Shown piece by piece: positions 6,018 to 55,418 of a stretch of 64,000 bases of DNA. Below the pieces are notes generated by a model. That model saw only the letters and a program-made list of their open reading frames with translations. It had not been told where the DNA came from and searched no databases. The stretch is from Pontiella desulfatans (GTDB lineage Bacteria; Verrucomicrobiota; Kiritimatiellia; Kiritimatiellales; Pontiellaceae), in NCBI RefSeq assembly GCF_900890425.1, contig NZ_CAAHFG010000001.1, forward strand, positions 434,001 through 498,000, given 5' to 3'. Positions within the stretch are counted from its first letter, which is position 1; each line of letters starts with the position of its first letter. The translations under genes and the position numbers were made by a program.

Positions 6018-9000
6018 ATGAGGATCCGTCGGATGACACATATAGCGATCAGTAAGATTTGTTTTTTTTCCGTGCTGCTGCTCTTGGCGGTTTCTGCGCC
6101 GGCGGTGGATTTTGTCTGGGATAACAGCGAAGGGGACAACGATTTCGCCAATCCGTTAAACTGGGTTGGCGATGCCTTTCTTGCTTCCGAAACGGCCGTG
6201 GTGGATCTGGCGGGAATCAATAAAGCGGTGCTGGGCAGCGGTTCCCCTGCAAACATAGATGTGCTTCGAATCGGTTACAACGGATCGGATGGAGCGTTTG
6301 AACAGACGGGCGGTACGCTCACGGCTACCTCAAATCCCGGCGCGGTGAGCCGGGTCGGAAACGGCTCCGGGAAAACCGGTTCGTGGTTAATGACCGGCGG
6401 GACAGCCAACATCAACGCCATTCAACTGGGGCTAGGCAGCGGCACCGGCGATCTAACCCTTGCCGGCGGCACCATGGCCATTGCTCGCGGCTATAATGAC
6501 TACAGTCTTCATGTGGGGGCCGGGGGAACCGGAATGATTGAAATTGCAGGGGGTTCCCTGAATACCCGAACGGGCGTCATTATCGGAAACGGCAGCACCT
6601 TCAAGGTGACCGGCAGTGCGGCGGCAACCATTGGCATCGGCAGCCACGGGCTGCTGGATGGCCGATGGATGCAAGCCGCCGGCGGAGTGCTGTGCGTCGG
6701 CATTGATACGACACCCACCGGGGTCAGCAAAATTTTTGTTGATGAAATCGATGGAACAACCGGGGTTTCCTGGGATGGCAACGTGACGTTTGAGGCCGGC
6801 TCCCTGCTTGATGTCGGGTATCTGGCTGCAACCAATCCGGGCACCTTTACCGTGATGGAATGGGATGGCGTTGTAACCAATAACGGCCTCGCGTTTGCCC
6901 CTTCGGTGGATACCAACGTCTGGAGCTTTAATGTGGATGCGCTGAACAAGCGGTTGACCGTAACGGCAGCAGGCACCGCCCCGGGACGCACCGCCGTAAC
7001 GGTAAATAGCCTGGCCGGCTTGAAGCTGTATCTGAACGCAACGGATCATGATGTAACCATGGCGCCGGGTACCTACCGCATAACTCCTGCCGACGTGACC
7101 TCCGGACTGTTTCCTGATTCCCACCTGTTTGAATTCATCGGTTCGAGCAACGTGTATGATTTTACGGGGGTAACCTTTGAAATCGAAACGGATGTGTTTC
7201 AGTCGTTCGGCGGCATCGATGTCAAAGAAATTGCTGTTTTCGGAGAAGGTCAGGTGCTGAAAAACCTGACCTTGACGGATATCGGGAACACGCGGCCTTC
7301 AAAAACCGCGCTGGGTGTGCTGCTGGATGGTGTCGGCAACCGGGTCGAGGGGTTCAACGTGACGGTGCGCGGCTCACAGCCCTATGGCTATGGCGATATT
7401 TTCGGCAAGGGCAGCGGCTATGTGATCAAGCACTTCAAGCACTCCGCCATTCTGGTCCGGGGCGAGGATAACCATCTGTTGAACTGCAAGGTCTTCCATC
7501 GGGCGTATGGTCACGGCATTTTCTGCCAGGGTTCCATCAATGCCGTGATTGAGGGTTGCTATGTGGAGGGCGAGGTCCGGTCGTCGGATGATGTGCTGGC
7601 GGAGGCCGGTTCCGGGTCGTCGGCCGACAATGTGGATTTCCGGACCAACTGGGGCGAGGACGAAAACGGGGAGAATGGATATACGCTCCAGCCCGGCTGG
7701 ATGTTCAGCTGCCAGGAGGATGGCATCCGTTGTTACAACACCGGGGTGGGCCTGGAAGGAACCAACACGGTGAATACAGCCAATATCCAGGTCATCGACT
7801 GCACCGTGAATCAGATGCGTTCCGGGGTGACGATCGGATTCTGCAACAATACCAAGTATGTCGAAAACTGCGTGGTCCTTGGAGTGGAAGGGGGCTACTG
7901 GGTGGGAACCGAAGGGGAAATTGTTGAATGCGCCGGCAATGCCGTTTATGGAAAGCTGCTGGGGAATGCCTACCAGACCGACCGGGACAGCGTGGTGGAT
8001 CTGACCGTCCTGGATAATACGGGCCGATATGGAAATACGATTCTCGCCTATACCGGCGGTTCCCGCCACGACCTGACCTTCCGGAGCAGGGATGCCTATG
8101 TCGATCCCAACCTGCGCATCATGATTGCGGGCATCCGTACGGGCATTCGCGAGTATGTCGTGAATCCGACTTACAACGATTTTTCCACCACCGACGTCGA
8201 GTTATACAACCACACGCAGTATCCGGTGGAAATGAATACGAAGAGCACGGGAACCAGCGGCCGGACGGATGGAAGTGTCGTGGATTACGGCACCGGGAAC
8301 AGCCTCGCTCAGATTCCGGTAACCACCGCGGGCGGTTACGGGGTGGTTCAGACCATCCAGGCGGAAGAATTTTCAACGCAGAGCGGCGCGTCGATTCAGA
8401 CCCGGGGGGATGGCATCCGCCATATGGGCGCCGCAAATGACGGCGACTGGATCTGCTTCGAGGACTTTTTCATGGGTTCGGGCCCCAACCGGTTTGAGGC
8501 GTTTGTGATGGGCGGTGCCGCTGCCGGAAGTATTGAACTGCGGCTCGATGGGGCGGCAGGAACACTCATCGGAACCTGCCCGGTGGCTGCCGGTTCAGGA
8601 GCATGGGTCGCCGAAACCATCACGCTGAATGAGCCGCGCGGCAAGCGTGATCTCTATCTGGTCTTCAAAGGAACCGCCGGGGCACTGCCCGGACTGGATC
8701 GCTTCCGTTTCTACGTCGAGTTTCCCGGCAGGAAAGCGGCCAAGGGGCTGGTGGGTCATTGGAAATTTGACGAGACCGCCGGAACGGTTGCATCCGACTC
8801 CTCGGGCTACGGACACCACGGCACCATGGCGAATGCCGCGTGGGTGAGCGGGAAGAAGGGCGGCGCGCTCGATTTCGGAGCAGGAGCTTCGACCGTTTCC
8901 ATTCCGTCGAATGCGTTTGATTCGGTTCAGGAAGAAATCACCATCGCCTGCTGGGCTTTCGGCGATGCCGCCCAGCCAACGGCGGACTCCCTGTTCTATG

Positions 9001-9746
9001 CGGTAGACGGCAGTACCCGGGTGCTGAACATTCATCTTCCCTACAGTGATTCAACGGTCTATTGGGATGCCGGAAACGACGGGGGCTATGACCGGATCTC
9101 CACGAATGCGGCTAGCGCCGATTACGAGGGATCATGGGCGCACTGGGTTTTCACCAAGAATTCGAAAACGGGGAACATGCGCATCTACCGCAACGGCGAA
9201 ATGTGGCACCATGCAGCGTTCCTGCAGAAAGAGATGCGGGGTATCACGGCCGCGTCTATCGGCAGCCAGATCGGGGGGGCAGCCAACTATAAAGGCATGA
9301 TCGACGACGTGCGGCTTTACGATGTTGAGCTCATGGAGCACGAAGTTACTCAGCTGTACGGTTCCTATGCCTATACTGATGCGGGCACACCGCACAGCTG
9401 GCTGGATGCCCACGCGCTGGTGACCGGCGGAGACTATGCCGCGGCCGATGCGCAGGATGCCGACAGCGATGGTTTGCTGAACGGCAGGGAATATTGGGCA
9501 GGAACCGATCCGACCAACGCCGCATCGGTATTCCGCATCACCGATGCCGAATCCGTAGGCAATCAATTGTTCTTTGACTGGTCGGCCGTCACAGGAAAAA
9601 CCTATGATGTGTGGTTTAAAACGAATCTTATGGAAACGGCATGGGTGTTGAGCGACAGCGGAATCCTCGGCATTGAGCCGGAATGTACGAGCACGGTGCT
9701 GACGGATCATGCCACGGGATTTATTCAGGTAGAGGTGGAGCGATAA
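6018..9746 (+). CDS. Large secreted multidomain beta-helix protein, paralogue B, with CBM6- and LamG-like modules
   Basis: 1,242 residues. Signal peptide (CFFSVLLLLAVSAPAVD), then an N-terminal Gly/Thr-rich autotransporter-like repeat region (~25-320). A beta-helix catalytic-type domain (~330-770) contains GSQPYGYGDIFGKG, KHS and AYGHGIFCQG. A CBM6-like module follows (~775-900; IQAEEF, GDWICFEDF). A LamG/concanavalin-like module (~905-1110) starts GLVGHWKFDETAG and contains SSGYGHHG. A Ca-type linker DADSDGLLNGREYW and a C-terminal beta domain end the protein. The modular design fits a surface or secreted enzyme that binds its glycan. Catalysis is inferred from paralogy only. Its stop overlaps the next start (TAATG). 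Confidence 0.82.
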   Translation: MRIRRMTHIAISKICFFSVLLLLAVSAPAVDFVWDNSEGDNDFANPLNWVGDAFLASETAVVDLAGINKAVLGSGSPANIDVLRIGYNGSDGAFEQTGGTLTATSNPGAVSRVGNGSGKTGSWLMTGGTANINAIQLGLGSGTGDLTLAGGTMAIARGYNDYSLHVGAGGTGMIEIAGGSLNTRTGVIIGNGSTFKVTGSAAATIGIGSHGLLDGRWMQAAGGVLCVGIDTTPTGVSKIFVDEIDGTTGVSWDGNVTFEAGSLLDVGYLAATNPGTFTVMEWDGVVTNNGLAFAPSVDTNVWSFNVDALNKRLTVTAAGTAPGRTAVTVNSLAGLKLYLNATDHDVTMAPGTYRITPADVTSGLFPDSHLFEFIGSSNVYDFTGVTFEIETDVFQSFGGIDVKEIAVFGEGQVLKNLTLTDIGNTRPSKTALGVLLDGVGNRVEGFNVTVRGSQPYGYGDIFGKGSGYVIKHFKHSAILVRGEDNHLLNCKVFHRAYGHGIFCQGSINAVIEGCYVEGEVRSSDDVLAEAGSGSSADNVDFRTNWGEDENGENGYTLQPGWMFSCQEDGIRCYNTGVGLEGTNTVNTANIQVIDCTVNQMRSGVTIGFCNNTKYVENCVVLGVEGGYWVGTEGEIVECAGNAVYGKLLGNAYQTDRDSVVDLTVLDNTGRYGNTILAYTGGSRHDLTFRSRDAYVDPNLRIMIAGIRTGIREYVVNPTYNDFSTTDVELYNHTQYPVEMNTKSTGTSGRTDGSVVDYGTGNSLAQIPVTTAGGYGVVQTIQAEEFSTQSGASIQTRGDGIRHMGAANDGDWICFEDFFMGSGPNRFEAFVMGGAAAGSIELRLDGAAGTLIGTCPVAAGSGAWVAETITLNEPRGKRDLYLVFKGTAGALPGLDRFRFYVEFPGRKAAKGLVGHWKFDETAGTVASDSSGYGHHGTMANAAWVSGKKGGALDFGAGASTVSIPSNAFDSVQEEITIACWAFGDAAQPTADSLFYAVDGSTRVLNIHLPYSDSTVYWDAGNDGGYDRISTNAASADYEGSWAHWVFTKNSKTGNMRIYRNGEMWHHAAFLQKEMRGITAASIGSQIGGAANYKGMIDDVRLYDVELMEHEVTQLYGSYAYTDAGTPHSWLDAHALVTGGDYAAADAQDADSDGLLNGREYWAGTDPTNAASVFRITDAESVGNQLFFDWSAVTGKTYDVWFKTNLMETAWVLSDSGILGIEPECTSTVLTDHATGFIQVEVER

Positions 9747-19624: not shown

Positions 19625-19631
19625 GGGTTTC

Positions 19632-21083: not shown

Positions 21084-21092
21084 GGTTTTTTT

Positions 21093-24410: not shown

Positions 24411-24469
24411 GCAAAGAACTCTACACAATGACTCATCTAATGGCTATAGAATTATTTAAAATGCTCTAT

Positions 24470-37660: not shown

Positions 37661-40600
37661 CTATGGCGTATAAGGCGCCCTGACGCGGTAGAACTTGCTG
37701 GTTTCCGCCGACATGTTGTCGGTCAGCGAATTGGCCGGGCCGATTACGGGATTGCCTGGGACATACATCCACGGGCCGGTCACTAGGTTGGTGGTTGATT
37801 CCAGCTCATAGGTGATGCCGCTCTGCACCGTCCATTCCACGGTTGAGGTGGTGCAGGAGGCGTTGAACGTCAGGTTCGTGATTTTCAGCGGAACGGTTGG
37901 TGCGGGCTGGAAGAGTTCAACGAGATAGTCCTCCACCTCGCCGTCGGTCGCCAGACCGGTTGGCGCAAGTCCGCCGCCCGACGAAATTCGGAAGCGCGCG
38001 AACACGGGGCCGATTGCCAGGGGAGGTGCGGGAATCGTGAAAGTAAGTCCTGCATTCAGCCCCGGTAACAGCGGGTGCGAAGTGCCTCCCCATAGGTGGT
38101 CGCCCACGAACGAGAAGTCGTTGCCATAGTCGATCCATGCATCGAGCTGTCCGCCGGCGCTGCCGGCCATGACGTCGATGGAGCCGCTGCTTCCGGCGAT
38201 GAGCAGGTTGTTGAACACTACGCCATCCTCGTCGTCCAACCCGTTCATGTCGTCCATGTCCGCCGCAGAGGGCTGTCCATCCGGTTCCCAATCGATGGCC
38301 GAACCAAGTACGATGCCGGGCACGATGGCATGGCGCGCGCCGTTGGGCAGCACGGTCTCGGGGAAGATGTCCGCATCGCCGAAGTCGAGGCCGTTGGTGT
38401 CGACGGCTTGGATGTCGAGCGCGTGGTCTTCCACTTCGCCGTCCATCGCCAGCCCGGTATAGGTGGAGATACCGCCGCTGGTGAAGCGGAAGCGCGAGGT
38501 GATCGGATAGACCGTGGCGGCGGAGGCCGGCACCGTGAAGCCGAGGCTGTTGATGCCCGGATGCAGGTTTTGGCCACTGAAGATCTGCTCGTTCAGATCA
38601 TCCCAATCGCCGTCGTTGTTGAAGTCCACCCACGCATCGAGCACGCCGTTGGTGGAGGCGTCCACGTCCACGCCCACATAGCCGCCGGCAAAGATCATGG
38701 TGGTAAAGAACACCCCATCCTCGTCGTCGGGGGATGGCCCGACAATGTCGTCGCCGTCGACCGCGATGGCCGGTTGCCCATCCGCCTCGGCATCGATCTG
38801 CCCGCCGAGGAAGTGGACTCCATCGATTACGTGGTGGGCACCGTTGTTGAGCAGGATGGTCGGGTAGACCGGAGTAATCCAGTTGTCGAAGGCGTCGCCC
38901 CAGTCGATGTCCATCGGTTCCTCGACGTGGACGAGGTAGTCTTCCACCTCTCCGTCATAGGCGAGGCCGGTTATGCCAATACCTTTGTAGGTGGAGAGGC
39001 GCAGGCGTAGGTGGAGCGCCCCGGGCAACGCCGTGGTCGGTACGGGGAAGCTGAGATTGTTTACACCCGAGCCGCTGGCGCCGAAGGTGACGAGCTCGTC
39101 GGCGAAGATTTGTTCGCCGGCATCCAGCCAGTCGCCGTCGTTGTTGAAGTCCGCCCAGCCCTGCAGCCAGGCATAGCCGCTGGCCGGAATTCCAACGCCC
39201 ACGGTCAGATCCATCTTCGCCCAGGTTCCCGGGATGATGGGGGTGGTGAAGACGATGCTTTCCTCATCGTCGGAGCCGTCCGTATCGTCACCGTCGCTTG
39301 CGGCGGTGGGTTGGCCATCAGGATCGGCGTCAACCTTGGCACCCATGCGCAGGGCAATGGCGGGGCCGCCGTAGATGATGTGTCGCGCGCCGTTCATGGC
39401 GAGCCAGGTTGGGTAGCCCGGATCGGGCGCGTCGCCAAAGTCGAGTTCCGGTTCGAGCTCGATATCGACTTCATAGTCTTCCACCTCGCCATTCTGCGCG
39501 CCGCCAGTGGGCGGAAGCGGGCCGTTGGTGTTGTAGCGGAAGCGCATGAAGTTTTGCCCCGGCGGGACACTCAGCGGAATGTTGATGGAGAGCGGGTTGA
39601 GGCCTGCCGAAACGTAGGCGCTATAGACCAGGTCGTTCGGGCCGAGCCAGTCGCCGTTGTTGTCGGCGTCGAGCCAGACATCGAGCCAGCCGGCCTGCGA
39701 AACCGTCACATCGATCAGCGCCGGTTGCCCCGGGAAGAGCGGGGTGTTGAAGACCACGCCGTCCTCGTCGTCCGCTGCGGGGCCGGCCAGGTCGTCGCCC
39801 GTTGCGGTGGCATTGGGTTGACCGTCGGTTTCCGCATCGATCAGGGTTCCCATGAATACACCGGGAACAATGAGATGGTTGGCGCCAGAGCTTGCGGCCA
39901 GCGTCGGGTAGGGCTGGTCGGGGGCGTCGCCCCAGTCGTAGGTTTCCTCCGGTTCCACTTCATCGTTGATGATGAAGGCGAGGTCGAGGGAGTTGCTGTA
40001 GATCGGGTCGATCAGCTCGCCCCATTGTTGATGGAATTCAACCGGCAGGTCTGCCCAGACCGCATCGTCGTTCCAGTGCGGCGAGCGCGAGGTTTTCCAG
40101 CCCCAGTAGCCTTCCGTTCCTTCGAGATCGACCGAAATGTCGAGCCAGTAGATGTTGCTTTCCACCTGAACAAAGGCATCCGCCTCCGGAATGGTGATGT
40201 CGTAGCGGAAATAATGGTTGTGGTCGTTCGTGTTCCAGTTGCCGGTGTTGGGATCGTACCAGCCCTGCCACGAGGGTTCCTCCGTCGTCACCGTGATTTC
40301 CCAACCCGCCGGGAGCATGAAGGGATCGACATCGATTTCCCATTCCGCCGGCACGACCGGACGGCTGTAGGGGATTTCCGGTAGATCGACCGGGATATCC
40401 TTATGGAAGCTGAAATGGAATTTCGAGATGCCGTTGAACTTGTGGAAGTTGGTTGGAATATAGCCGTTGTATTGGAACGAACCCCAGAAGGTGATCTTGG
40501 TGATCGGGCCGTTGGAGGTGCAGAGGAAATCGTCGGCCAAAACCTTGTGGAACTGATCGTCGGGATTACCGTCGAGATAGCTCGCGCGCACGTCCCAGCC

Positions 40601-41767
40601 GTGGGGGTCGGGATATTGCGGCCAGTGCATCTTGTGGTCTTCCTCGGTGGTCTCAATCCAGACTTCGTAGTCCTCCACCTCGCCGTCCGGTGCCGTCCCG
40701 TTGGGGGCGAGCCCGCCATTGAGGCTGAAGCGGAAGCGGGCGAAGGTTTTGCCTGCGGTGGCACCGCCCGGAATGGTTACGGAAAGCGCATTGGCTCCTG
40801 CGCCTAGCGGTGTGCTACTGAAGATTTTTTCGGCCGCATTCCATACGCCATCCTGGTTGTAGTCGATCCAGGCATCGAGGTAGCCGGCTGTCGAGGCGGT
40901 CGCGGTGAGCGTTGCGGTCTGGTTTTGCACGAGCAACGACGTGAAAGCAATGCCGTCTTCGTCGCCCGGAGGGTAGGGGCTGCCGGGATAGGCTTGGTTG
41001 ATGTCGTCGCCGAGTGCCTTCGCATGCGGTTGTCCGTCGAGATCGATGTCGACGACGGCTCCGAGATAGACGCTGGCATTGATCAGGTGGTTGGCACCGT
41101 TGTTGGCAGCGAGGGTTGGATATTTCGGGCTTGAAGCCGAATCGGGGGCATCGCCCCAGTCATAGAAGTCTTCCAGTTCCTGGGTGATCTGGATGAAATA
41201 ATCCTCCACCTCGCCATCGGGTGCCGGGCCGACGTGTTGAAGCGCCACTCCGCTGGCATTGAAGCGGAAACGGGCGTAGGTATAGCCGGGACTCGCCCAG
41301 ACGGGTACGTTGAAATTCAGTGTGTTGGCACCGGCGATCAGCGGCTGCGTCGTGAAGATTTGGTCGCCAACCGTCGTCCAGTCGTTATTGCCTGAAAAGT
41401 CGATCCAGGCGTCGAGATCGCCGTTGACCGATGCCGTCACCGTGATCTGGGCAACCTGCCCGGGAATCAGCGGTGTATCCCAGGAAACGCCATCCTCATC
41501 GTCGAACGGTGGTGGATAGGCAATGTCGTTGTCGTCGCCGATGGCGTTGATATGGGGTTGCCCGTCGGGCTCGGTATCGACGGGAGCCAAACCGAGGAAA
41601 ATGTGCTGGGAACCAATGGAAACCAAGTGCCGCGCGCCATTGTTGGCGAGCAGTGTCGGGAATCCCGGGTCGGGGGCATCCCCGAAGTCGAATTCCTCCT
41701 GGGCAACGGCGCTACCCGCCAGAATCAGAGCCAGCAAGGTGCCGGCAATTGCTGCTTTTGCTTTCAT
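37661..41767 (-). CDS. Giant secreted protein with six GEVED domains
   Basis: 1,368 residues. Start ATG 41767 (MKAKAAIAGTLLALILAGSAVAQ, a signal peptide) has GGAG upstream; longer in-frame sequence is rejected. Six repeats of ~150-180 residues, each beginning D[FW]GDA, containing a DGQP and DDEDGV core and ending GEVEDY or close variants. Two lie at ~25-370 and four at ~620-1285. Between them (~375-615) sits a WGS/ADDF-containing domain resembling DUF7901. A C-terminal module (~1290-1368) ends KFYRVRAP. Acidic Asp-rich repeats suggest calcium binding and a surface or matrix role. Function unknown. Confidence 0.85.
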   Translation of the reverse strand: MKAKAAIAGTLLALILAGSAVAQEEFDFGDAPDPGFPTLLANNGARHLVSIGSQHIFLGLAPVDTEPDGQPHINAIGDDNDIAYPPPFDDEDGVSWDTPLIPGQVAQITVTASVNGDLDAWIDFSGNNDWTTVGDQIFTTQPLIAGANTLNFNVPVWASPGYTYARFRFNASGVALQHVGPAPDGEVEDYFIQITQELEDFYDWGDAPDSASSPKYPTLAANNGANHLINASVYLGAVVDIDLDGQPHAKALGDDINQAYPGSPYPPGDEDGIAFTSLLVQNQTATLTATASTAGYLDAWIDYNQDGVWNAAEKIFSSTPLGAGANALSVTIPGGATAGKTFARFRFSLNGGLAPNGTAPDGEVEDYEVWIETTEEDHKMHWPQYPDPHGWDVRASYLDGNPDDQFHKVLADDFLCTSNGPITKITFWGSFQYNGYIPTNFHKFNGISKFHFSFHKDIPVDLPEIPYSRPVVPAEWEIDVDPFMLPAGWEITVTTEEPSWQGWYDPNTGNWNTNDHNHYFRYDITIPEADAFVQVESNIYWLDISVDLEGTEGYWGWKTSRSPHWNDDAVWADLPVEFHQQWGELIDPIYSNSLDLAFIINDEVEPEETYDWGDAPDQPYPTLAASSGANHLIVPGVFMGTLIDAETDGQPNATATGDDLAGPAADDEDGVVFNTPLFPGQPALIDVTVSQAGWLDVWLDADNNGDWLGPNDLVYSAYVSAGLNPLSINIPLSVPPGQNFMRFRYNTNGPLPPTGGAQNGEVEDYEVDIELEPELDFGDAPDPGYPTWLAMNGARHIIYGGPAIALRMGAKVDADPDGQPTAASDGDDTDGSDDEESIVFTTPIIPGTWAKMDLTVGVGIPASGYAWLQGWADFNNDGDWLDAGEQIFADELVTFGASGSGVNNLSFPVPTTALPGALHLRLRLSTYKGIGITGLAYDGEVEDYLVHVEEPMDIDWGDAFDNWITPVYPTILLNNGAHHVIDGVHFLGGQIDAEADGQPAIAVDGDDIVGPSPDDEDGVFFTTMIFAGGYVGVDVDASTNGVLDAWVDFNNDGDWDDLNEQIFSGQNLHPGINSLGFTVPASAATVYPITSRFRFTSGGISTYTGLAMDGEVEDHALDIQAVDTNGLDFGDADIFPETVLPNGARHAIVPGIVLGSAIDWEPDGQPSAADMDDMNGLDDEDGVVFNNLLIAGSSGSIDVMAGSAGGQLDAWIDYGNDFSFVGDHLWGGTSHPLLPGLNAGLTFTIPAPPLAIGPVFARFRISSGGGLAPTGLATDGEVEDYLVELFQPAPTVPLKITNLTFNASCTTSTVEWTVQSGITYELESTTNLVTGPWMYVPGNPVIGPANSLTDNMSAETSKFYRVRAPYTP

Positions 41768-42032
41768 GGTTCCATCTCCTTTTCTTCCATTATGCCGAGG
41801 GAACACCCTTCCTCCCGAAGGGCTTGGATTCCTGTAGGCAAAGCGGGGTGCGCGGGATGGTTGAAGGCGGCGATTGCCGATCGTGAACCGAGCTGGTCGT
41901 TCATGTTCATCCCCTTGGTTTGGCAACCGGCATGACCGCCAGCTGGCGAATGTAATTAATAGTCGGGAATCTCTTTTTCGTAAAGAACAAATCCCTATTA
42001 AGGTGCAAGTCTTTACTTTGAGGGAAGGATCT
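41768..42032 (-). other. Upstream region of GEVED gene 1
   Basis: No gene seen. Minus-strand GACTTGCACCTT (42011-42000) is repeated with one change upstream of the second GEVED gene (46894-46883), so it may be a common regulatory site. Confidence 0.4.
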
Positions 42033-42072
42033 AAAGAAAAACCGGGGACTGGATCTCTTTTCCAGTCCCCGG
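42033..42072 (-). terminator. Strong intrinsic terminator after GEVED gene 2
   Basis: Read on the minus strand, CCGGGGACTGGA pairs perfectly with TCCAGTCCCCGG (12 bp, 7-nt loop), followed by TTTTTCTTT. Two more GC hairpins (42074-42092 and about 42097-42120) stand between it and the stop codon. Confidence 0.85.
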
Positions 42073-42122
42073 AGGGCGGTGGGAAGCCGCCCATCTGAAG
42101 CGCCTTGCCTACGGCGCTTAAA

Positions 42123-45100
42123 CTATGGCGTCCACGGCACGGTGACGCGGTAGAACTTGACGCGTTCGGCCGATATGTTGTTGGTCTGCCAGTTGACCGG
42201 GCCGATGACTGGACTGCCGGTTGGAATCCAAGGGCTGACCAGCAGGTTGGTCTTTGTTTCCAACTGGTATTGAATGCCGTTTTCAACTGTCCATTCGTTG
42301 GTCGAAACCGTTAAGCCTGTATTGAACGTCAGCTTGGTAATGACCAGGTTGGTCGGTGCAGGCTGGAAGAGCTTCACTCCGTAGTCTTCCACTTCGCCGT
42401 CATTCGCCGGGCCGGATGGTGCCAGGCCGCCTGCCGTGGAGATACGGAAGCGGGCCATACTCGGGCCGAGCGCCTGCGCCGGCAGTCCCGGAACCGCGAA
42501 CGTCAAGCTATTAGCCCCCGGATTCAACCATTGCGATGAACCTAGCCACAAGTGCTCGCCGGCGAAGGAACCATCGTTGTTGAAGTCGATCCACGCGTCG
42601 AGATTTCCGCCCGAAACGCCGGCAACCGCAATGATGGTGGCGTTCGATCCGGCCACGATTTTTCCGCCGAAGCTTATGCCGTCTTCGTCGTCGAGGCCCG
42701 TGGTGTCATCCAAGGTTGCCGCCGAGGGCTGGCCATCGGGTTCGGGGTCGATCACCGCTCCCAGCATAACGCCGGCCACGATGGTGTGGCGGGCTCCTGT
42801 CGGAAGCAGGGTTGGGTATGAATTCGGCGCATCGCCGAAGTCCCGTCCGGGATCGGCGTTTTTGATAAGGAATTCATAGTCCTCGACCTCGCCATCCATG
42901 CACAATCCAGTATAGGAGACGCTGGCAGGATACGCGCTTGGAGCTCCACTGAGGCGGAAGCGGCTGTAGCCGGGGCCCCAGCTGGCAGTGAGCGGAACCG
43001 GGAAGAACAGGGAGTTGGTGCCCATGGCGAGTGGTTGGCCGCTGAAGATTTGATCTCCGGCCTGTGCCCAGCTACCGTCCGCGTTGAAGTCCACCCACGC
43101 GTCCAGCATGCCGGGTTGCGATGCAATCACATTCACCGAAGCATAGCCTCCGGGCATGAGCAGCGGGCAGGTCAGAATCACGCCATCCTCGTCGCCGGGG
43201 GGATAGGGGATGCCGGGATACAGCAAGTTGGCATCATCGCCGTCCGCATTGATGCTTGGCTGTCCATCCTGTTCAGGATCAACTGCTTTGCCAAGGAACA
43301 ATGGGGAGCCGAGGAGATGATGCGCCCCGTTGTTGGCTGCGAGGGTGGGGTAGCCGGTGGGGGCATCGCCCCAGTCGATATCCGAATCCGGGTAGACCTC
43401 CTCCATGTAGTCCTCGACCTCGCCGTCGGGGGCCGTGCCGCTGAAGGGCAGTCCGCGGACGCTACTGTAGCGGAAGCGGATGCCGGCAGGAACGGAGGCT
43501 CCGGTTCCGTTTGGCGGAACCACGAACGACAGCAAATTGTTTCCAGGTGCCAGCGATACGTTCATGAGCACCTGTTCGCCGGGGTCGCCCCAGAAACCGT
43601 TGCCGTTGGCATCGACCCAGCACTGGAGGAAGCCGGCCGGGCCGCTGGCCACGACATTGACCTGGGCCACTGCACCGGGAATGAGCGGCGTCAGGAAGGT
43701 GACGCCGTCCTCGTCGTCGCCTAGCGAGGGGTAGAGGGCGTCAAGGTCGTCGCCATCGGCCCCGGGTGTGGGCTGGCCGTCCGGTTCGGGATCGACAAAC
43801 GCGCCGAGGGTCGGGTTCAGTCCGCCGCCGAGGATATAGTGGTTTGCGCCACCGCTGCCGGAGAGCGTTGGGTAGGGGGTGTCGGGCGCATCGCCCCAGT
43901 CGATTGGGTCTTCAATGATGAACTGGTAGTCCTCGACCTCGCCGTCGGGCGCGTAGCCGATCGGCGACAGACCCCCGGTGGTGCTGAGCCGGAACCGGGC
44001 ATAGCTGGTTCCGGGAACCGCGGTGTTTGGAACCGGGAAGCTCAAGCTGTTGGCGCCGGGATTCAGGACATGGGAGCTGAATATCTGGTCGCCGGCTGTC
44101 CAGGTTCCGGAGCCGTCGAGATCCATCCAGGCATCCAGCATCGCCGCGGCGGCCCCGTTCATGGTCACCTGCAGCGTTGCGTTGAGTCCGGGGACGATGG
44201 CGGAGGTGAAGACCACGCCGTCCTCGTCGCCCGCAGGGTAGGGAACGCCGGGATAGAGGATGTTTATGTCATCCCCATCGGCGGGTGGTGTCGGCTGCCC
44301 GTCCGGCTCGCCGTCAATCTGGTTGCCCAGCATAAAGCCGGGGATGATGGCGTGGTTGGCGCCGGTGTTGGCGGCCAGGGTGTTGAAGCCCACCGCGCCG
44401 GCGGCGTCGGGTGCATCGCCCCAGTCGTAGTTTTCCATCTGTTCCTCGGGGCCGCAGAAGAGGGCGAAGGCGAGGTCGAAGGAGTTGTCTTCCCACTGGT
44501 GGTAGGGGTGGCCGGGCGGGTAGTGCAGGTCAAACCAGTCGTAGCCGTTGTAGAGTTCGAGGTTGGGCGACCAGGCTGCGTCGTCGTTCCATTGGTGGTC
44601 TGGCGGCGTGGTTTTCCAGCCGAAGCGGGCCTCTTCCATCTCATCGATCGGATGGGCCTGTACATCCAGCCAGTAGATGATCGGGCGATCGACCGTGCCG
44701 GTCTGCACGAAAGCGTCGGCGAGATCGACCGGGAAGGTGTATTGCCAGCACGTCCAGTCCGCGTTGGGTATGTAGGTGCCGGAGGGCGGGTCGTACCAGC
44801 CTTCCTGCATGCCGTCGAAGGTGATCGGTTCGGCGGAAAACTCGCTCGGGTTAAACGTCCTCACCCATAGGTTCGATCCGGGGATGCTCCAGGGGCGCGC
44901 CGTTCCGGCGGGCAGGTCGGCGTGGAAGCTCAGGGTGAAGCTGACGTTGCTCGGGTTGGCGATGCCGTCGATCATGGGCAACTCATCTCCCAGCCAGGAA
45001 CCCCAGACGATGATGTTGGTGATGGCGCAATGGTTGGTGCACAGGAAGTCATCCGCCAGCAGGATGGGCGGATCGCCTTGCAGGCGGCACGCCACATCGA

Positions 45101-46778
45101 AGCCGTTGCTCGAAAGGTCGGGCGGCTGGAACCACTTGGCGTCGGGGTATGGATCGGGGTCGGGGTCGCCGCCGTCGATGACGAAGGCGAGGTCGAGCGA
45201 TTCCCCGGTGAGGGGATCGCGCAGTTCCTTCCATTGGGCCAGGTTGGTGACGGGTAGGTCGGCCCAGACACCATCGTCGTTGAAGTGCTCGGAACCGGAG
45301 GTTTTCCATCCCCACAGGGCTTCCGATTCGCCCAGCATCACGGAAATGTCGAGCCAGTAGATTTCGCCTTCAGTTTGCACGAAGGCGTCGTCGACCGGGA
45401 TGGTGACGTCGTAGCGGAAGTATTGTGAATGGTTGTTTTCCTCGAAGGTGTCGTGGTTGGGATCGTACCAGCCTTGCGAGGAGGGTGCTTCCGCAGTGAC
45501 CTCAATGGCCCAGCCGGCAGGCAGGTTGAAGGGATCGAGATCGAATTCCCATTCCGATGGAATCACCGGCATGCTGTAGGGCACCCATGGCGGATCGGCG
45601 GGGATGTCTTTGTGCAGGCTGAGGTGGAAGTTGGTGATGCCTCCGTATTCGTGGGAGGGGTTGAAGCCGTCGAACTCGAAGGAACCCCAAAAGGTGATCT
45701 TGGTGATCGGCCCGTTGGCGGAGCATTGGAAATCGTCGGCCAGCACTTTTTGCAGCTGGTCGGGGCCCCATTCGTGATAGCTTGCGCGCACGTCCCAGCC
45801 ATTGGGGTCGGGGAGCTGCGGCCAGTGCATCTTGTGGGTCGGTTCATAGGGTGGTGGCTCGTCGTGGAAGACGGAAACATCGGAGCTGCGGGCCGGCGGC
45901 TCGGGGTAGGGGGTGTAGGTGCTGTCGTCTCCGAGCAGATCGATCCACGTGCTGATCTTGAGCGAGGTGGTACGGTTGGCGAAAAGGTCGATTCCATCCG
46001 ATTGCGATGCGTATAAGAGGTCGTAGCGCGGGTCGGTCGGATCCATGGGCGGGTCGACGGTGAAGTCCAGCGTTCTGCAAGTCGAATTATAAACGGGAAT
46101 GTCTCCGAAATCCCAGGTCGGCACATAGTAGTTTCCGACCTCCTGATTGGCAGGGGGATCTGCCGGGCTCCAACAATACCAGGCCAACTCGTCCTCATTG
46201 TCGGCGATGATCCAGCTTGGATACGGTGGCTGGTTGTACGGGCCGGTAAATGCATTTGGCAGCAGGCCGGTATCGGCGATGGCAAAGTCCGCCGTCAGCT
46301 TGGTATCGACCAGCGTGCCGGCATAAAATTCATCTTCCGCCATGGGTTGGCGGCTCTCGCCGTGGCTGTTGTCGGATGCCGAAGCATCCCCGAAGGTCGA
46401 AAGCGTATCGTTGTATATGCATGCATCGATCTTGAAACCGATGATGGGATCGCCGTAGCCGCCGCTGGCGCCGGTGGCATACTGGATTCCACCTGGAGGA
46501 ACGATCCCCTCGATGGCGTAGGTCTCGGCGTTGCCTCCTCCATACTCCAGCAGGTTGTCGTGGAACTCGTACGGGCGGTATTCCTCGTCGCCGGTTGCGA
46601 GATCGAGGAACCACTGGCCGTTGGTCGCTGCCGGATCCTGCATCGGGCCGGTGAGGATGCCGGTGGATTGAACCGGCGGTTTGGTGATGGGCAGCGATGG
46701 CGCTGCCTGCAGCGAGACGGCTGCAATGGATAGGGCTGCAATGAGCAGCGCGGTGGTGCGGAATACTTGAGCCTTCAT
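42123..46778 (-). CDS. Giant secreted protein with four GEVED domains
   Basis: 1,551 residues. Start ATG 46778 (MKAQVFRTTALLIAALSIAA, signal peptide) with GGAGG eight bases upstream. A unique N-terminal domain (~25-310; Gly/Tyr/Asp-rich, YGDPIIGFKIDACIYND) precedes two DUF7901-like modules (~315-540 with KVLADDFQC and ITFWGSF; ~545-780 with LLADDFLCTN and IIVWGSW). Four GEVED repeats follow (~785-1470), then the same C-terminal module as its neighbour (ends KFYRVTVPWTP). The tandem genes clearly arose by duplication and domain shuffling. Likely extracellular or cell-surface; no enzymatic motif seen. Confidence 0.85.
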   Translation of the reverse strand: MKAQVFRTTALLIAALSIAAVSLQAAPSLPITKPPVQSTGILTGPMQDPAATNGQWFLDLATGDEEYRPYEFHDNLLEYGGGNAETYAIEGIVPPGGIQYATGASGGYGDPIIGFKIDACIYNDTLSTFGDASASDNSHGESRQPMAEDEFYAGTLVDTKLTADFAIADTGLLPNAFTGPYNQPPYPSWIIADNEDELAWYCWSPADPPANQEVGNYYVPTWDFGDIPVYNSTCRTLDFTVDPPMDPTDPRYDLLYASQSDGIDLFANRTTSLKISTWIDLLGDDSTYTPYPEPPARSSDVSVFHDEPPPYEPTHKMHWPQLPDPNGWDVRASYHEWGPDQLQKVLADDFQCSANGPITKITFWGSFEFDGFNPSHEYGGITNFHLSLHKDIPADPPWVPYSMPVIPSEWEFDLDPFNLPAGWAIEVTAEAPSSQGWYDPNHDTFEENNHSQYFRYDVTIPVDDAFVQTEGEIYWLDISVMLGESEALWGWKTSGSEHFNDDGVWADLPVTNLAQWKELRDPLTGESLDLAFVIDGGDPDPDPYPDAKWFQPPDLSSNGFDVACRLQGDPPILLADDFLCTNHCAITNIIVWGSWLGDELPMIDGIANPSNVSFTLSFHADLPAGTARPWSIPGSNLWVRTFNPSEFSAEPITFDGMQEGWYDPPSGTYIPNADWTCWQYTFPVDLADAFVQTGTVDRPIIYWLDVQAHPIDEMEEARFGWKTTPPDHQWNDDAAWSPNLELYNGYDWFDLHYPPGHPYHQWEDNSFDLAFALFCGPEEQMENYDWGDAPDAAGAVGFNTLAANTGANHAIIPGFMLGNQIDGEPDGQPTPPADGDDINILYPGVPYPAGDEDGVVFTSAIVPGLNATLQVTMNGAAAAMLDAWMDLDGSGTWTAGDQIFSSHVLNPGANSLSFPVPNTAVPGTSYARFRLSTTGGLSPIGYAPDGEVEDYQFIIEDPIDWGDAPDTPYPTLSGSGGANHYILGGGLNPTLGAFVDPEPDGQPTPGADGDDLDALYPSLGDDEDGVTFLTPLIPGAVAQVNVVASGPAGFLQCWVDANGNGFWGDPGEQVLMNVSLAPGNNLLSFVVPPNGTGASVPAGIRFRYSSVRGLPFSGTAPDGEVEDYMEEVYPDSDIDWGDAPTGYPTLAANNGAHHLLGSPLFLGKAVDPEQDGQPSINADGDDANLLYPGIPYPPGDEDGVILTCPLLMPGGYASVNVIASQPGMLDAWVDFNADGSWAQAGDQIFSGQPLAMGTNSLFFPVPLTASWGPGYSRFRLSGAPSAYPASVSYTGLCMDGEVEDYEFLIKNADPGRDFGDAPNSYPTLLPTGARHTIVAGVMLGAVIDPEPDGQPSAATLDDTTGLDDEDGISFGGKIVAGSNATIIAVAGVSGGNLDAWIDFNNDGSFAGEHLWLGSSQWLNPGANSLTFAVPGLPAQALGPSMARFRISTAGGLAPSGPANDGEVEDYGVKLFQPAPTNLVITKLTFNTGLTVSTNEWTVENGIQYQLETKTNLLVSPWIPTGSPVIGPVNWQTNNISAERVKFYRVTVPWTP

Positions 46779-46982
46779 AGGTCTTTCCTCCCCAGCCCAA
46801 TCACGGGCTTTTCTAGAATTTAACCGTTGTGTCTCTCCTTGGTTCCGACAAGGCGGTTTTAACGCCGTTGGCGAGGGGTGTAAAGGTGCAAATCCATAAA
46901 ACACCAATAGGTATGTAGGGGTATCATTAAATGCATGTTTTTCAATAGGTTCGGTAAATGCGGGTCTCATTCCGGTGTTTTG
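46779..46982. other. Divergent intergenic region between GEVED gene 2 and beta-helix gene
   Basis: No gene seen. Holds the AAGGTGCAAATC site (46883-46894) shared with the region before GEVED gene 1, and a weak hairpin GGCG-GTTTTAA-CGCC. Confidence 0.4.
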
Positions 46983-47010
46983 TTGACAGCCCGCCCGAAA
47001 GGCTTATCCT
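46983..47010 (+). promoter_or_regulatory. Sigma-70-like promoter of the secreted beta-helix gene
   Basis: TTGACA (46983-46988), 16-bp spacer, TATCCT (47005-47010). This would give a 5' leader of ~150 nt before ATG 47171. Confidence 0.6.
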
Positions 47011-47170
47011 GCCGGATGTTCACCTACCGGGAGGCGGTTGGAATGCAGATAATTCTCCATTCATCCAGGCGGTGCCGGAACGAGGCATTCCGCTTCGTTT
47101 TCCTCCCTCCGAACCCCGCTTTCCATTCCTTGGAAATTTCACCCATCAACCCTTCACGGAGGAGAGTTCC

Positions 47171-49153
47171 ATGAAAAATAAAATCGCTACCATCGCGCTT
47201 CTGTTCTGGAGCGCCGCCGCATTTGCGGCCACGTACTATGTGGACATCAACAACGCAATACCGGTCGCCCCCTATACCAACTGGGCGATGGCGGCGATGA
47301 ACATCCAGGACGCCGTCGATGAGGCATCTGCCGGGGAAACCGTATTCGTGACCAACGGCACCTACCTGCTGGATGCGGAGGTTTCGGTGCCCGGCGGGAT
47401 CCGGCTGGAGAGCATGGGCGGTTTAGAGGATACGCTCGTGGTAGCCGTCAACAGCAACCGTTGCTTTAGCCTCGGAGCCGGGGCTTTCCTCGGCGGCTTC
47501 ACCATCACCAATGGATACAGTTCGGGGAACGCTGGAGGAATCTACTGTGCCGACGATTCCGTCATGATCACCAACTGCGTTATAACGGGAAATTCGGCGG
47601 GAGCCGACGGGGGTGGACTATATAACGGCGACGCATACGATTGCCGCTTTATCGATAATTCAGCAAACCGCGGTGCGGGCTTCTTTGACGGCTCGGCAAC
47701 CGCGTGCCTTTTCTCCGGTAATATTGCGGCTTATGAAGGGGGCGGGATCTATTCCGGCTCTGCCAGCGCGTGTGTCTTTACCAACAATACCTCTCTTGGC
47801 AGCGGTGGCGGAACCTTCAATGCCTCTGCCAACAATTGCACCTACATTAACAATAAGGCTACAAGCAAAGGTGGTGGGTTCAGTATCTTTTCCAACACAG
47901 CGATACCCAGCAATTGCGTCTTCATCGGCAACACGGCAGACCTGGGAGGGGGAGTCTATGAGGCCGGTTCGGTAATCGATTGCGTTTTTTCGAACAACGT
48001 TGCTGTGAGATCCGGCGGAGCGGTGTACGCTGGTGTCGCTGTAATCAACTGCTCATTTTCCGGCAACATCGCCTCGAACAACAGTGGCGGCGCGATCGTG
48101 GCTACTTATGCATACGATTGTTTCTTCACTAACAACTGGGCAAACGAACACGGCGGCGCGATATACCAGGACGGTGCGTCCAACTGCACCTTCATCGGTA
48201 ACCATGCCAACGGAACCGGGGGAGCCAAATCTTGGTATAATCACGTTATGCGGGATTGCGTTTTCATTTCCAACTCCACTGCGGGCGATGGAGGTGCGGT
48301 GCGCGATGGGCAGCTATACAACTGCATCTTCTATGGAAACTCCGCGAGTGACGGCGGCGCGGTGTCGGAAGCGGATCTCTACAACTGCGTTGTGTTCAAC
48401 AACACCGCTTATTCTGTCGGTGGCGGGGCGGAAAGAAGCTCGGCCTACAACTCCATCATCTGGTCGAACTCCGCGCCGACGGGGAGCGACCTCTATGCAA
48501 CCGACCCAGTTCGGTGTTGCCTGTCCGACAGCGTGACCTATCCGCCGTCAGGGGCAAATGTTGACTGTATATACACCGATCCGCAGTTTGTGGATGCCCC
48601 CACCGCCGACTTCCATCTCCTGGCCACCTCGCCCTGCATCGATGCCGGAAGCAATGCCCTCACCCAGGCTTCATCCGACTTCGACGGCATTCCGCGCCCG
48701 CTCGACGGCGACACCAACGGCACCGCCACCATCGACATCGGGGCCTATGAATTCCTCATCGCCACCGCCGACTCCGACGGCGACACCATGCCCGACGGCT
48801 GGGAAACCGACCACGGCCTCAATGCCGCCGTGGCCGACGCTTCCGGCAACCCCGACGCCGACCCGCACGATAATCTCAGGGAATACTACGCCGACACCGA
48901 CCCGTTCGACTCCGGTGACTTCCTGCGGATCACCGACTTCGAGGTCGATGGCGACACGAACACCGTGTTCTGGATGTGCCGACCCACACGCCGCTACACG
49001 TTGCAATTCACCGCGGAGCTGACCAACGGATGGACGAGCGCCGGGTCGAGCTTCGTGCCGCCGTTCAGCGGCGAGATCGGCGAAATGGTCGTCGGTGTGG
49101 TCGGCACCAACCGCTTCTACCGCGTGCAGGCCGAGCTGCCGCTCAGCCCGTAG
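47171..49153 (+). CDS. Secreted polymorphic-outer-membrane-like beta-helix protein with C-terminal FYRV module
   Basis: 660 residues from ATG 47171 (GGAGGAG upstream; the frame open from 46958 has no start support). Signal peptide MKNKIATIALLFWSAAAFA. About 15 rungs of the form GGGxY..S..xCxFxxNxA (GGGLYNGDAYDCRFIDNSA and similar) form a right-handed beta-helix like the GG[AGL]-FxxN repeats of chlamydial Pmp/adhesin-type proteins. Then TDPQFVDAPTADFHL and SPCIDAGS (choice-of-anchor Q-like), an Asp-rich DSDGDTMPDGWE linker, and a C-terminal domain ending NRFYRVQ. Probably surface adhesin or structural rather than enzyme. Confidence 0.82.
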   Translation: MKNKIATIALLFWSAAAFAATYYVDINNAIPVAPYTNWAMAAMNIQDAVDEASAGETVFVTNGTYLLDAEVSVPGGIRLESMGGLEDTLVVAVNSNRCFSLGAGAFLGGFTITNGYSSGNAGGIYCADDSVMITNCVITGNSAGADGGGLYNGDAYDCRFIDNSANRGAGFFDGSATACLFSGNIAAYEGGGIYSGSASACVFTNNTSLGSGGGTFNASANNCTYINNKATSKGGGFSIFSNTAIPSNCVFIGNTADLGGGVYEAGSVIDCVFSNNVAVRSGGAVYAGVAVINCSFSGNIASNNSGGAIVATYAYDCFFTNNWANEHGGAIYQDGASNCTFIGNHANGTGGAKSWYNHVMRDCVFISNSTAGDGGAVRDGQLYNCIFYGNSASDGGAVSEADLYNCVVFNNTAYSVGGGAERSSAYNSIIWSNSAPTGSDLYATDPVRCCLSDSVTYPPSGANVDCIYTDPQFVDAPTADFHLLATSPCIDAGSNALTQASSDFDGIPRPLDGDTNGTATIDIGAYEFLIATADSDGDTMPDGWETDHGLNAAVADASGNPDADPHDNLREYYADTDPFDSGDFLRITDFEVDGDTNTVFWMCRPTRRYTLQFTAELTNGWTSAGSSFVPPFSGEIGEMVVGVVGTNRFYRVQAELPLSP

Positions 49154-54600: not shown

Positions 54601-55418
54601 TGGCTAAACATGCTCGCAACCCTGAGCAAGGGATAGATTGTGAATTAGCTTCCGAAATTCTTTTGTCTATAATAAGGAATCCTGCTGACATTGAAGACGT
54701 TCCTTTCGCTTCCGTTCAATACCATATCCAAGAAGTAATTCAGGTGCTGCAAGGCGTCGGCTCAATCGATGATCAAATGATGATCGAAATTGAATGGAAT
54801 TATCTTCGGATGTTCCGGTTTGATCGCTTCACACCAATATATCTATTCAAGAAAGTTGCTGCTGACCCAGCGTTTTTTGCACAATTGGTGAGCTGGATTT
54901 ATAAAAAGGAAGAGCTAGCTGAGGCCGAACAGGAGCAGAGGAAGCTGCTGGCAGAAAAATCATTCACACTGCTTGATAAAATTAATCTATGGGAAGCGGG
55001 GGATGAGCAGGTGGTAAGTAGAGAGGGGCTTTCAAGATGGGTGGAGCAAGTTCGTTTAACGCTTCTTGAAGAGAATTTAACAGGAATAGGCGATGATCGT
55101 ATTGGGCATTGTTTGTCACACTGTCCTGAAGGAGCGGATGGTATATGGCCTCACGAAAATGTCCGACACGTAATCGAAGCAATTAAAAGCAAAGAACTTG
55201 ATGTTGCGGTTCAGGTCGGTAGAAGCAACTCACGGGGAGCGACTAGCAGAGCAATGTTTGAGGGTGGTGATCAGGAACGGAACCTAGCTGACAAATATCA
55301 GGAGGAGGCCGAGAAGCTGCAACTGGTCTTTCCTCGAACCGCTACGATTCTTAGGTCGCTGGCATCGAGTTATGACTGGGATGCAAAGCGGCATGACCAG
55401 AATGTGGAACTTTACTAG
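51618..55418 (+). CDS. Large island-borne protein: nuclease-like N-terminus, degenerate P-loop region and helical repeats (candidate defence protein)
   Basis: 1,266 residues, no signal peptide or membrane helix. Residues ~40-175 contain GGWDGILEV (Asp66), GHSGWEFGT (Glu86), KADGDYAKR and TFVFVTSRLW, a pattern like a divergent PD-(D/E)XK nuclease or sensor domain. ~185-345 resembles a STAND-type NTPase without a clear Walker A (LIVRNQDGW, NPLILIPYG, HTVVIVATT). The remaining ~900 residues look all-helical, as in ligand-sensing solenoids. AT-rich codon use unlike the flanking genes. Followed after 18 bp by a second gene. Architecture and context suggest anti-phage defence; no named system is claimed. 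Confidence 0.7.
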   Translation: MEYIQTGGIVDGWHVTTNDIRHWTETNKRRAEEILPLLVDKLIRASCKPKNVSFPSGDDIAIGGWDGILEVEEGNEFVPSGHSGWEFGTNASVKGKADGDYAKRLAEPAPLDPKRSTFVFVTSRLWTRCDKWVSSKKSAKEWGNVIGLNAEKLSSWLLQCPAVHRWFAELIGKRTSDTRDVGQAWEAHSSRTETKLTPEFFLYGRDSQVNCLSGKMRQQNNVIRVASESADEAYGFVLSTILQDENASARSLIVRNQDGWDAMAPSPNPLILIPYGFIPNEIGAATNSGHTVVIVATTKSHPPAEIILGRLQRMEKTKAFAALGFDEATSHELYRKTKGYFEPLLRHPLMKPIDYVGPEWPQQISADALFAILFASEWNKDNENDRNALESLSGMTYGDFEKIVLEVSKADDPPVRLIGSIWQVISKMDFFLRIAHLASQTILGRFVEVMNQILSDEDPGYDLPEEERHLASFSNETPQYSNNLKEAVADTAALLAAHIDDHEDVLGATNPSSIIHYAVRSLFESNQTTKHWYSLGSCTQLLAEAAPEEYLTAVENASTGEPPALLGLFEAEGAGVFGGCYHSNLLWGLEGISWNKQYLSRVAQCLAKLSQIDPGGSYSNRPFSSLCDMFLGWINNTNATHDERLEIVDKVLIPQFPDVAWKLMVELLVDKHSTTSGIHEPEYRDWAQAIEQSTTVPAYYGYVYAMVDLLIREFNNHINRDIVTLISEFDSYKPDQRDAIVDKFMAVDVESLDPELRHEIRNKFRETISRHREFSDVKWAWPEALLVRLEAVHDHFKFQDLVEDNVYLFDKRHAPLIDAVSKKDVSYDERDALVRGKRREVIEAIYMEYDMPGITQLADTCADPYLVGEALYDSSMGQDVSEMMFEWVEGDGVTSQVAKSFISSWACRSTGELLELFDSRSEWDSVMKATILLNFLLTEDTLERIEQLDEAGQREYWSKALRYYVRGDKAPSINIVARRLLENDRPLAAIDTIAMAKHARNPEQGIDCELASEILLSIIRNPADIEDVPFASVQYHIQEVIQVLQGVGSIDDQMMIEIEWNYLRMFRFDRFTPIYLFKKVAADPAFFAQLVSWIYKKEELAEAEQEQRKLLAEKSFTLLDKINLWEAGDEQVVSREGLSRWVEQVRLTLLEENLTGIGDDRIGHCLSHCPEGADGIWPHENVRHVIEAIKSKELDVAVQVGRSNSRGATSRAMFEGGDQERNLADKYQEEAEKLQLVFPRTATILRSLASSYDWDAKRHDQNVELY

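What the first reader, a model, noticed from the sequence alone, without database searches (positions are those of the whole stretch)
37661..49153. Shared C-terminal module ending FYRV in secreted proteins
Both GEVED proteins and the beta-helix protein at 47171 end with a ~75-residue domain (TNL...W...FYRV). The same type of end, more diverged, occurs in the protein at 6018. A common C-terminus on unrelated bodies suggests a sorting or attachment signal.
Basis: partly seen in the sequence, partly recalled or inferred. Interest (0 to 1): 0.5.

Follow-up and report, generated by a model that had tools for sequence, protein, structure and literature searches.

The report
Candidate C-terminal tail on secreted proteins
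A small folded domain sits at the very end of well over a hundred diverse exported proteins in this marine bacterium, in the place where a known sorting tag (PEP-CTERM) sits on others, so it is a good candidate for an undescribed sorting or attachment tail, although its function is not yet tested.

Summary
A ~75-residue domain ends four window proteins (37661, 42123, 47171, 6018); a profile built without these copies finds all four (E 5e-20 to 8e-8; best of 651 decoys 0.87). It is a large family: at least 150 copies in this 8.66 Mb genome, more through the class and in other Verrucomicrobiota. 130 of 150 copies end 0-15 residues before the stop, and in 117 of those 130 the stop is 6-9 residues after the F of FYRV. 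Carriers are diverse and mostly have signal-peptide-like starts. No Pfam or NCBIfam model fits. AlphaFold predicts a six-stranded FN3-like sandwich (pLDDT 88.7), apparently lacking strand G, so that an amphipathic strand F ends the chain. It shares a slot with PEP-CTERM: some homologous bodies carry one tail or the other, and some genes of the two kinds are same-strand neighbours, more than shifts predict in two genomes. Eleven of 150 copies are plainly internal, so an obligatory C-terminal signal is not supported. Best reading: an exchangeable attachment or sorting tail that works like, but does not belong to, type IX C-terminal domains. Partner and export role are untested.

The parts
37664..37891 (-). 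C-terminal module of GEVED protein (P0001), 76 aa, directly before the stop
37661..41767 (-). GEVED x6 + DUF7901 secreted protein (carrier), no TSP3-like linker before the module
42126..42350 (-). C-terminal module of second GEVED protein (P0004), 75 aa, directly before the stop
42123..46778 (-). DUF7901 x2 + GEVED x4 secreted protein (carrier)
48770..48919 (+). Asp-rich TSP3/EF-hand-like linker before the module of the beta-helix protein
   Evidence: motif read by eye; no Pfam TSP3_bac hit on this protein
48920..49150 (+). C-terminal module of beta-helix protein (P0003), 77 aa, the most diverged of the four
47171..49153 (+). beta-helix / Chlam_PMP-repeat / choice-of-anchor Q secreted protein (carrier)
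9456..9527 (+). TSP3-like linker before the module of the CBM6/LamG protein
   Evidence: (TSP3_bac E 0.17, below cut-off)
9528..9743 (+). C-terminal module of CBM6/LamG/beta-helix protein (P0002), 72 aa, closest to the family consensus; modelled with pLDDT 88.7 together with its linker
6018..9746 (+). CBM6 + Laminin_G_3 + beta-helix secreted protein (carrier)

Best explanation
The module is an exchangeable C-terminal tail: a ~75-residue FN3-like beta-sandwich, probably without the last strand (G), on Sec-exported, mostly large proteins. Most likely the carrier is exported by its signal peptide and the tail folds outside the inner membrane. The exposed edge of its last strand (F, the FYRVEVE strand) is then recognised by an envelope or matrix partner, probably by beta-strand pairing, and that partner moves the protein to the cell surface or holds it there or in the exopolymer. 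Shown: the position, a predicted fold, signal-peptide-like starts on most carriers, body diversity, taxon spread, and use of the same slot as PEP-CTERM on some bodies. Inferred: the missing strand, the partner, strand pairing, and whether the step is translocation or attachment.
For: 130 of 150 own-genome copies end 0-15 aa before the stop, and in 117 of these 130 the stop is 6-9 aa after the conserved F. 19 of 20 copies, one each from 20 other genomes, end within 15 aa of a stop. Control: 0 of 13 ordinary fn3 (PF00041) hits of the same genome do so; 7 of the 13 lie inside module carriers, which leaves 0 of 6 as the independent part. The last strand alternates: hydrophobic at +1 (100% of 129), +3 (99% of 125), +5 (91% of 112), +7 (93% of 27) after the F, polar at +2 (98%), +4 (78%) and +6 (92% of 87). 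Signal-peptide-like start in 83 of 109 complete ORFs of 600 aa or more, against 1, 0 and 0 of 109 in three interior windows. Bodies belong to many families. Tail swap: 20 of 89 PEP-CTERM bodies have a homologue among 126 module-protein bodies; in three of ten pairs printed the homology runs up to the two different tails. Neighbours: 23 of 93 PEP-CTERM genes lie within 1 kb of a module gene, all 23 on the same strand (shift mean 4.9, maximum 13 in 500 shifts); in G021 10 of 64, all same strand (mean 2.7, none of 1000 shifts reaches 10). Fold: six strands, pLDDT 88.7; single-domain FN3 chains of 87-99 residues align up to their residue 74-82 while the model is used to its last residue; the one PDB sequence hit below E 0.1, the Fn3-like 3mpc (E 0.002), is matched up to residue 75 of 103.
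Against: Eleven of 150 copies are plainly internal; two more lie ahead of a further 93 residues; tandem copies exist, as for ordinary FN3 domains. Exported enzymes without the module are common: two window sulfatases with signal-peptide-like starts; if the genome is that of strain F1, most of its 495 reported sulfatases (PMC6388578, passages) probably lack it, since 12 of 139 scanned carriers had a Sulfatase hit. The PEP-CTERM neighbours could reflect tandem duplication and clustering of polysaccharide genes; I ran no control with other secreted genes, and in G021 the count without regard to strand (10 within 1 kb) is reached by 18 of 1000 shifts. Across 35 genomes the two counts correlate (partial rank r 0.50 given size; no tree correction, capped counts and mixed thresholds), yet G044 has 11 modules and no PEP-CTERM hit and G051 has 17 PEP-CTERM and no module, so they are not one system. 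No partner was found. Foldseek gave no hit at E <= 0.001, and Z about 7 may mean only a common sandwich. The model of the GEVED copy is poor (pLDDT 58.9).
Confidence: 0.5

Rival explanations
1. It is an ordinary mobile FN3-like accessory domain (spacer, stabiliser or adhesive knob) that is usually appended at the C-terminus by domain shuffling and carries no sorting information.
For: Internal and tandem copies; FN3-like fold; carriers rich in other beta-sandwich domains; exported proteins without it.
Against: Ordinary fn3 hits of the same genome are not C-terminal (0 of 13, or 0 of 6 outside module carriers); the stop position is nearly fixed; it shares a slot with PEP-CTERM on some bodies.
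Confidence: 0.3
2. It binds polysaccharide (a CBM-like domain) and tethers enzymes to algal polymer or to the cell's own sulfated exopolymer.
For: Many carriers match polysaccharide-active families or CBMs; the genus Pontiella makes sulfated exopolymers (PMC7356697, title and passages); a CBM56 appears low among the fold hits (rank 43).
Against: The conserved residues (W, Y, L, W/F, F, Y) look like FN3 core positions (inference); I identified no conserved exposed aromatic patch, but had no coordinates to test it; many carriers match no enzyme family in the lists shown.
Confidence: 0.15
3. It is a diverged type IX secretion C-terminal domain used by a T9SS.
For: Similar size, beta-sandwich, extreme C-terminus and many diverse carriers (PMC4804311, passages).
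Against: Por_Secre_tail PF18962: 0 matches in the genome, while the control search rang in Bacteroides; no T9SS model among the Pfam hits of 30 modules; SprA_N 0 of 6 genomes (control silent, so weak); six strands predicted against seven.
Confidence: 0.02

Closest known systems
Type IX secretion C-terminal domain (Por_Secre_tail, Bacteroidota)
   Same: ~75-residue beta-sandwich at the extreme C-terminus of many diverse, large, Sec-exported proteins; there the export signal lies in the last 22 residues (PMC4804311, passages)
   Different: No sequence match; FN3-like with six predicted strands, not seven-stranded Ig-like; internal and tandem copies occur; no T9SS gene found (one family, silent control)
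PEP-CTERM / exosortase
   Same: C-terminal tail repeated on many diverse exported proteins of one genome; same slot on some homologous bodies; usually in the same genomes
   Different: The module has no PEP motif, no transmembrane helix and no basic end; it is a folded domain; carriers are large (median 970 aa of 118 complete ones) against PEP-CTERM proteins (median 276 aa of 93)
Fibronectin type III domain (PF00041; PDB 3mpc Fn3-like protein)
   Same: Strand order and core W and Y positions (by alignment); structure Z about 7, sequence E 0.002 to 3mpc
   Different: Probably lacks strand G and ends at strand F; not recognised by the fn3 model; usually C-terminal, whereas the genome's fn3 hits are not
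Chaperone-usher pilin subunits (recalled, not tested)
   Same: Incomplete Ig-like sandwich without strand G and an amphipathic C-terminal strand F
   Different: No donor-strand extension, chaperone or usher was looked for; carriers are multidomain proteins, not pilins

Membership tests
Type IX secretion CTD (Por_Secre_tail) | match to PF18962 | tested here: not met
   0 matches in the own genome, control rang in Bacteroides ihuae (below the cut-off); not among the hits of 30 modules
Type IX secretion CTD (Por_Secre_tail) | strictly C-terminal position | tested here: not met
   130 of 150 end 0-15 aa before the stop, but 11 are plainly internal
Type IX secretion CTD (Por_Secre_tail) | SprA translocon present | tested here: inconclusive
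   0 of 6 genomes; no control genome rang
Type IX secretion CTD (Por_Secre_tail) | cleavage by PorU and surface attachment | not testable with these tools
   needs proteomics
PEP-CTERM / exosortase | PEP motif, transmembrane helix and basic cluster in the tail | tested here: not met
   sequences; tail composition
PEP-CTERM / exosortase | exosortase in the genome | tested here: met
   1 in the own genome, 34 of 35 genomes
Fibronectin type III (PF00041) | match to the fn3 profile | tested here: not met
   PF00041 matched none of 30 modules at E <= 1; fn3_SORL1 matched 1 of 30 at E 0.072
Fibronectin type III (PF00041) | FN3 sandwich fold | tested here: inconclusive
   confident model, FN3 domains on top with Z about 7, Foldseek E above 0.001; 3mpc E 0.002
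Chaperone-usher pilin-like incomplete Ig fold | missing strand G completed by a donor strand | not testable with these tools
   missing strand inferred from where alignments end; no donor tested

The most novel reading that the evidence does not exclude
Kiritimatiellia and related Verrucomicrobiota use a C-terminal secretion or surface-attachment system of their own, functionally parallel to type IX secretion. Its signal is an incomplete FN3 domain whose missing strand is supplied by an unidentified envelope receptor, and it serves large proteins while PEP-CTERM/exosortase serves mostly small ones.
Probability: 0.25. Interest if true: 0.82.

Novelty: new variant of a known kind. Interest (0 to 1): 0.58.

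Why it matters
How these polysaccharide degraders place their many large exported proteins is not explained in the Pontiella papers whose passages I saw. A C-terminal tail with at least 150 copies in one genome and no fitting Pfam or NCBIfam model is a direct handle: it gives a profile, a list of carriers, a contrast set (PEP-CTERM relatives of the same bodies), and a testable prediction of an exposed edge strand bound by a partner. If it proves to be only an accessory domain, it still deserves a family model, since genome searches show it in many genomes.

Tried and rejected
Type IX CTD was rejected as a family, but absence of the machinery is not shown (silent control). Absence of a family among the fold hits is not used as evidence.

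A first, lenient signal-peptide rule (123 of 144) was dropped because it rang on 7 of 11 presumed cytosolic window proteins when any Met was allowed. The stricter rule rings on 1 of those 11 and on 1, 0 and 0 of 109 interior windows; it misses some starts that look like signal peptides by eye.

The neighbouring PEP-CTERM proteins were considered as one receptor family for the module; the 18 read have diverse bodies, so I dropped the idea. A second structure job on the GEVED copy gave a poor model (pLDDT 58.9) and is not used. The viral structure library gave nothing of use. Exosortase is in 34 of 35 genomes, so it cannot discriminate.

Limits and dropped rows: only 150 of 396 candidates were scored in the own genome, so 150 is a floor; PEP-CTERM likewise (150 of 200 scored). 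Of the 20 copies not counted as ending 0-15 aa before the stop, two have a stop well inside the match and look broken. Of 146 distinct carrier ORFs, 139 went to Pfam; the short ones and those with a stop in the match were left out. Of 93 PEP-CTERM hits, one was not fetched and three without the motif in their last 50 residues were dropped, leaving 89. In one search I printed 10 of the 20 homologous pairs. Of the 36 rival fn3 comparisons none was made beyond the 13 hits. Class denominators are not printed. ORFs run from stop to stop. For G021, contig lengths of C1-C3 were taken from the P. sulfatireligans records by size and C4 was estimated.
Full report
What is there. Four window proteins end in the same ~75-residue module: 37661-41767 (-; six GEVED, one DUF7901), 42123-46778 (-; two DUF7901, four GEVED), 47171-49153 (+; beta-helix, choice-of-anchor Q) and 6018-9746 (+; beta-helix, CBM6, Laminin_G_3). 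Pfam and NCBIfam place nothing on the module in these proteins; 30 modules scanned alone gave only scattered single hits (Pfam best E 0.036, NCBIfam best E 0.0012, each family in 1 of 30). A profile from 26 other copies, with the window rows left out, recovers the four at E 5e-20, 7e-15, 2e-11 and 8e-8; the best of 651 decoys is 0.87.

How common. A four-row profile gave 139 hits at E <= 1 in the window's genome. A 30-row profile gave 150 of 150 scored, from 396 candidates, so 150 is a floor. Of 58 genomes (own and relatives), 56 have hits at E <= 0.001. Of 288 genomes across the phylum, 118 have hits; by my count of the listing 77 are in the window's class and 41 in other classes. A search of named genomes returned 34 loci, 29 of them labelled Pontiella, Pontiellaceae or Kiritimatiellales. 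The window's genome is probably that of Pontiella desulfatans F1: 8.66 Mb and 55.9% GC in the stretches fetched, against 8.6 Mbp and 56.0% in PMC7356697 (passages seen). This is inference.

Where it sits. I fetched all 150 own-genome copies with flanks. 130 end 0-15 residues before the stop; 2 have a stop well inside the match and look broken. The other 18 are four first copies of tandem pairs, two copies in one protein ahead of a further 93 residues, one fragment, and eleven plainly internal copies, some ahead of what reads like a sulfatase or an esterase (those labels are read by eye from the residues after the module). In 117 of the 130 the stop is 6-9 residues after the conserved F. Control: of 13 ordinary fn3 hits of the same genome none ends within 15 residues of a stop; 7 of the 13 lie in module carriers, so the independent part is 0 of 6. 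I also took the top copy from each of 20 other genomes of my choice: 19 of 20 end within 15 residues of the stop.

On what. 139 of 146 distinct carrier ORFs were scanned in three sets (only the top 25 families of each set are shown). Families include Sulfatase (12 carriers, in the two sets where it is listed), SASA esterase (5), S8 peptidase (3), polysaccharide lyase 8 (2), beta-helix, CBM96, CBM6, LamG, PKD, cadherin-like and bacterial Ig domains. A strict signal-peptide rule rings in 83 of 109 complete ORFs of 600 aa or more, against 1, 0 and 0 of 109 in three interior windows and 1 of 11 presumed cytosolic window proteins. In 85 of 142 copies with at least 75 residues upstream a D-x-[DN]-x-D motif lies in those 75 residues; this resembles the bacterial TSP3 linker, but Pfam's TSP3_bac itself reaches E 0.001 in only 12 of 139 carriers. 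The two GEVED proteins lack such a linker.

Fold. With 33 rows, AlphaFold gives pLDDT 88.7 and six strands for the 6018 copy with its linker. Foldseek has no hit at E 0.001; FN3 and Ig-like sandwiches dominate the list. VIA-align puts FN3 domains on top: Z 7.2, rmsd 2.6, 67 aligned for 4lpv; Z 7.2, rmsd 2.3, 64 aligned for 5g56. Z of this size may mean only a common arrangement. In the single-domain FN3 chains of the list (87-99 residues) the aligned part ends at residue 74-82, while the model is used to its last residue. The one PDB sequence hit below E 0.1, the Fn3-like 3mpc (E 0.002), is matched up to residue 75 of 103. I infer that strand G is missing and that FYRVEVE is strand F at the end of the chain. 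After the F its residues alternate: hydrophobic at +1, +3, +5 and +7 in 100, 99, 91 and 93%, polar at +2, +4 and +6 in 98, 78 and 92%. I had no coordinates, so the open edge is inference. A model of the GEVED copy was poor (pLDDT 58.9).

The slot. The genome also has at least 93 PEP-CTERM tails, none of them inside the window, and one exosortase. PEP-CTERM proteins are small (median 276 aa, 85 of 93 under 500) and module proteins large (median 970 aa, 11 of 118 complete C-terminal carriers of 150 aa or more under 500; stop-to-stop lengths). Of 89 PEP-CTERM bodies, 20 have a homologue among 126 module-protein bodies. Of ten pairs printed, three show homology running up to the two different tails: C1:989525/C1:993152 (neighbours, 65% identity), C1:1435274/C1:1439558 (neighbours, 38%) and C1:1972809/C2:509607 (46%); in the other seven the module protein goes on with further domains. 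Twenty-three of 93 PEP-CTERM genes are within 1 kb of a module gene, all on the same strand; circular shifts give a mean of 4.9 and at most 13 in 500. In the sister genome G021: 10 of 64, all same strand, mean 2.7, none of 1000 shifts as high; without regard to strand 18 of 1000 shifts reach 10. This may partly reflect tandem duplication and clustering of polysaccharide genes, and I ran no control with other secreted genes. Across 35 genomes the two counts correlate (partial rank r 0.50 given size; no tree correction, capped counts), but each tail occurs without hits of the other (G044, G051).

Mechanism. A folded ~75-residue sandwich with an almost fixed distance from its last strand to the stop, repeated on diverse exported proteins and on some bodies exchanged for a known sorting tag, works most like the type IX C-terminal domain, a seven-stranded Ig-like sandwich whose targeting signal lies in its last 22 residues (PMC4804311, passages). 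It is not a member: no sequence match and internal copies exist. [quoted passage not shown] the module has none of these parts. I therefore favour an attachment or sorting tail recognised through its exposed C-terminal strand (0.5), ahead of a plain FN3-like accessory domain (0.3) and a sugar-binding domain (0.15). Two window sulfatases with signal-peptide-like starts (4255, 11404) lack the module, and a third (19260) has no signal-peptide-like start at its listed start, so the tail marks a subset of the exported proteins.

What is in print. Ten searches listed no paper on such a tail that I could recognise from titles and abstract starts. Word searches in three Pontiella papers found no occurrence of C-terminal, exosortase or secretion (secret- in the first) in PMC6388578, PMC10880615 and PMC7356697, and none of PEP-CTERM in the last two; passages only. 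The library holds open-licence papers only. My recollection that similar C-termini are widespread in Verrucomicrobia is recalled, not sourced, though the 41 genomes with hits outside the class agree.

Noticed in passing
G046 (class relative) PEP-CTERM hits: In this genome with only six module hits, 6 of the 11 PEP-CTERM frames listed (19 in all) are large (759 to 2174 aa), unlike in the window's genome, where 85 of 93 are under 500; this would fit the two tails substituting for each other.
   Followed up: no
window 4255-23450: Polysaccharide-degradation cluster around the 6018 protein: three sulfatases, an alginate-lyase-like, a PDZ/beta-helix and a GH95 protein, several with signal-peptide-like starts, none with the module apart from 6018 itself.
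   Followed up: partly
window 24395-27130: 911-aa frame without Pfam hits that ends in a hydrophobic stretch followed by MRRKDRRTW, looking like a C-terminal membrane anchor with a basic end.
   Followed up: no
window 51618-55418: 1266-aa protein without any Pfam match at E 0.001.
   Followed up: no
window 37661-46778: The two GEVED proteins are adjacent, same-strand relatives with different numbers of GEVED and DUF7901 units; their modules are 59% identical.
   Followed up: partly
own genome C1:3257601, C3:838725, C1:3685574: Module copies in very short frames or with a stop inside the match, apparently remnants of broken genes.
   Followed up: no
own genome C1:4161565-4162116: Two tandem modules followed by a further 93 residues; the only tandem pair among those listed that does not reach the stop codon.
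   Followed up: no
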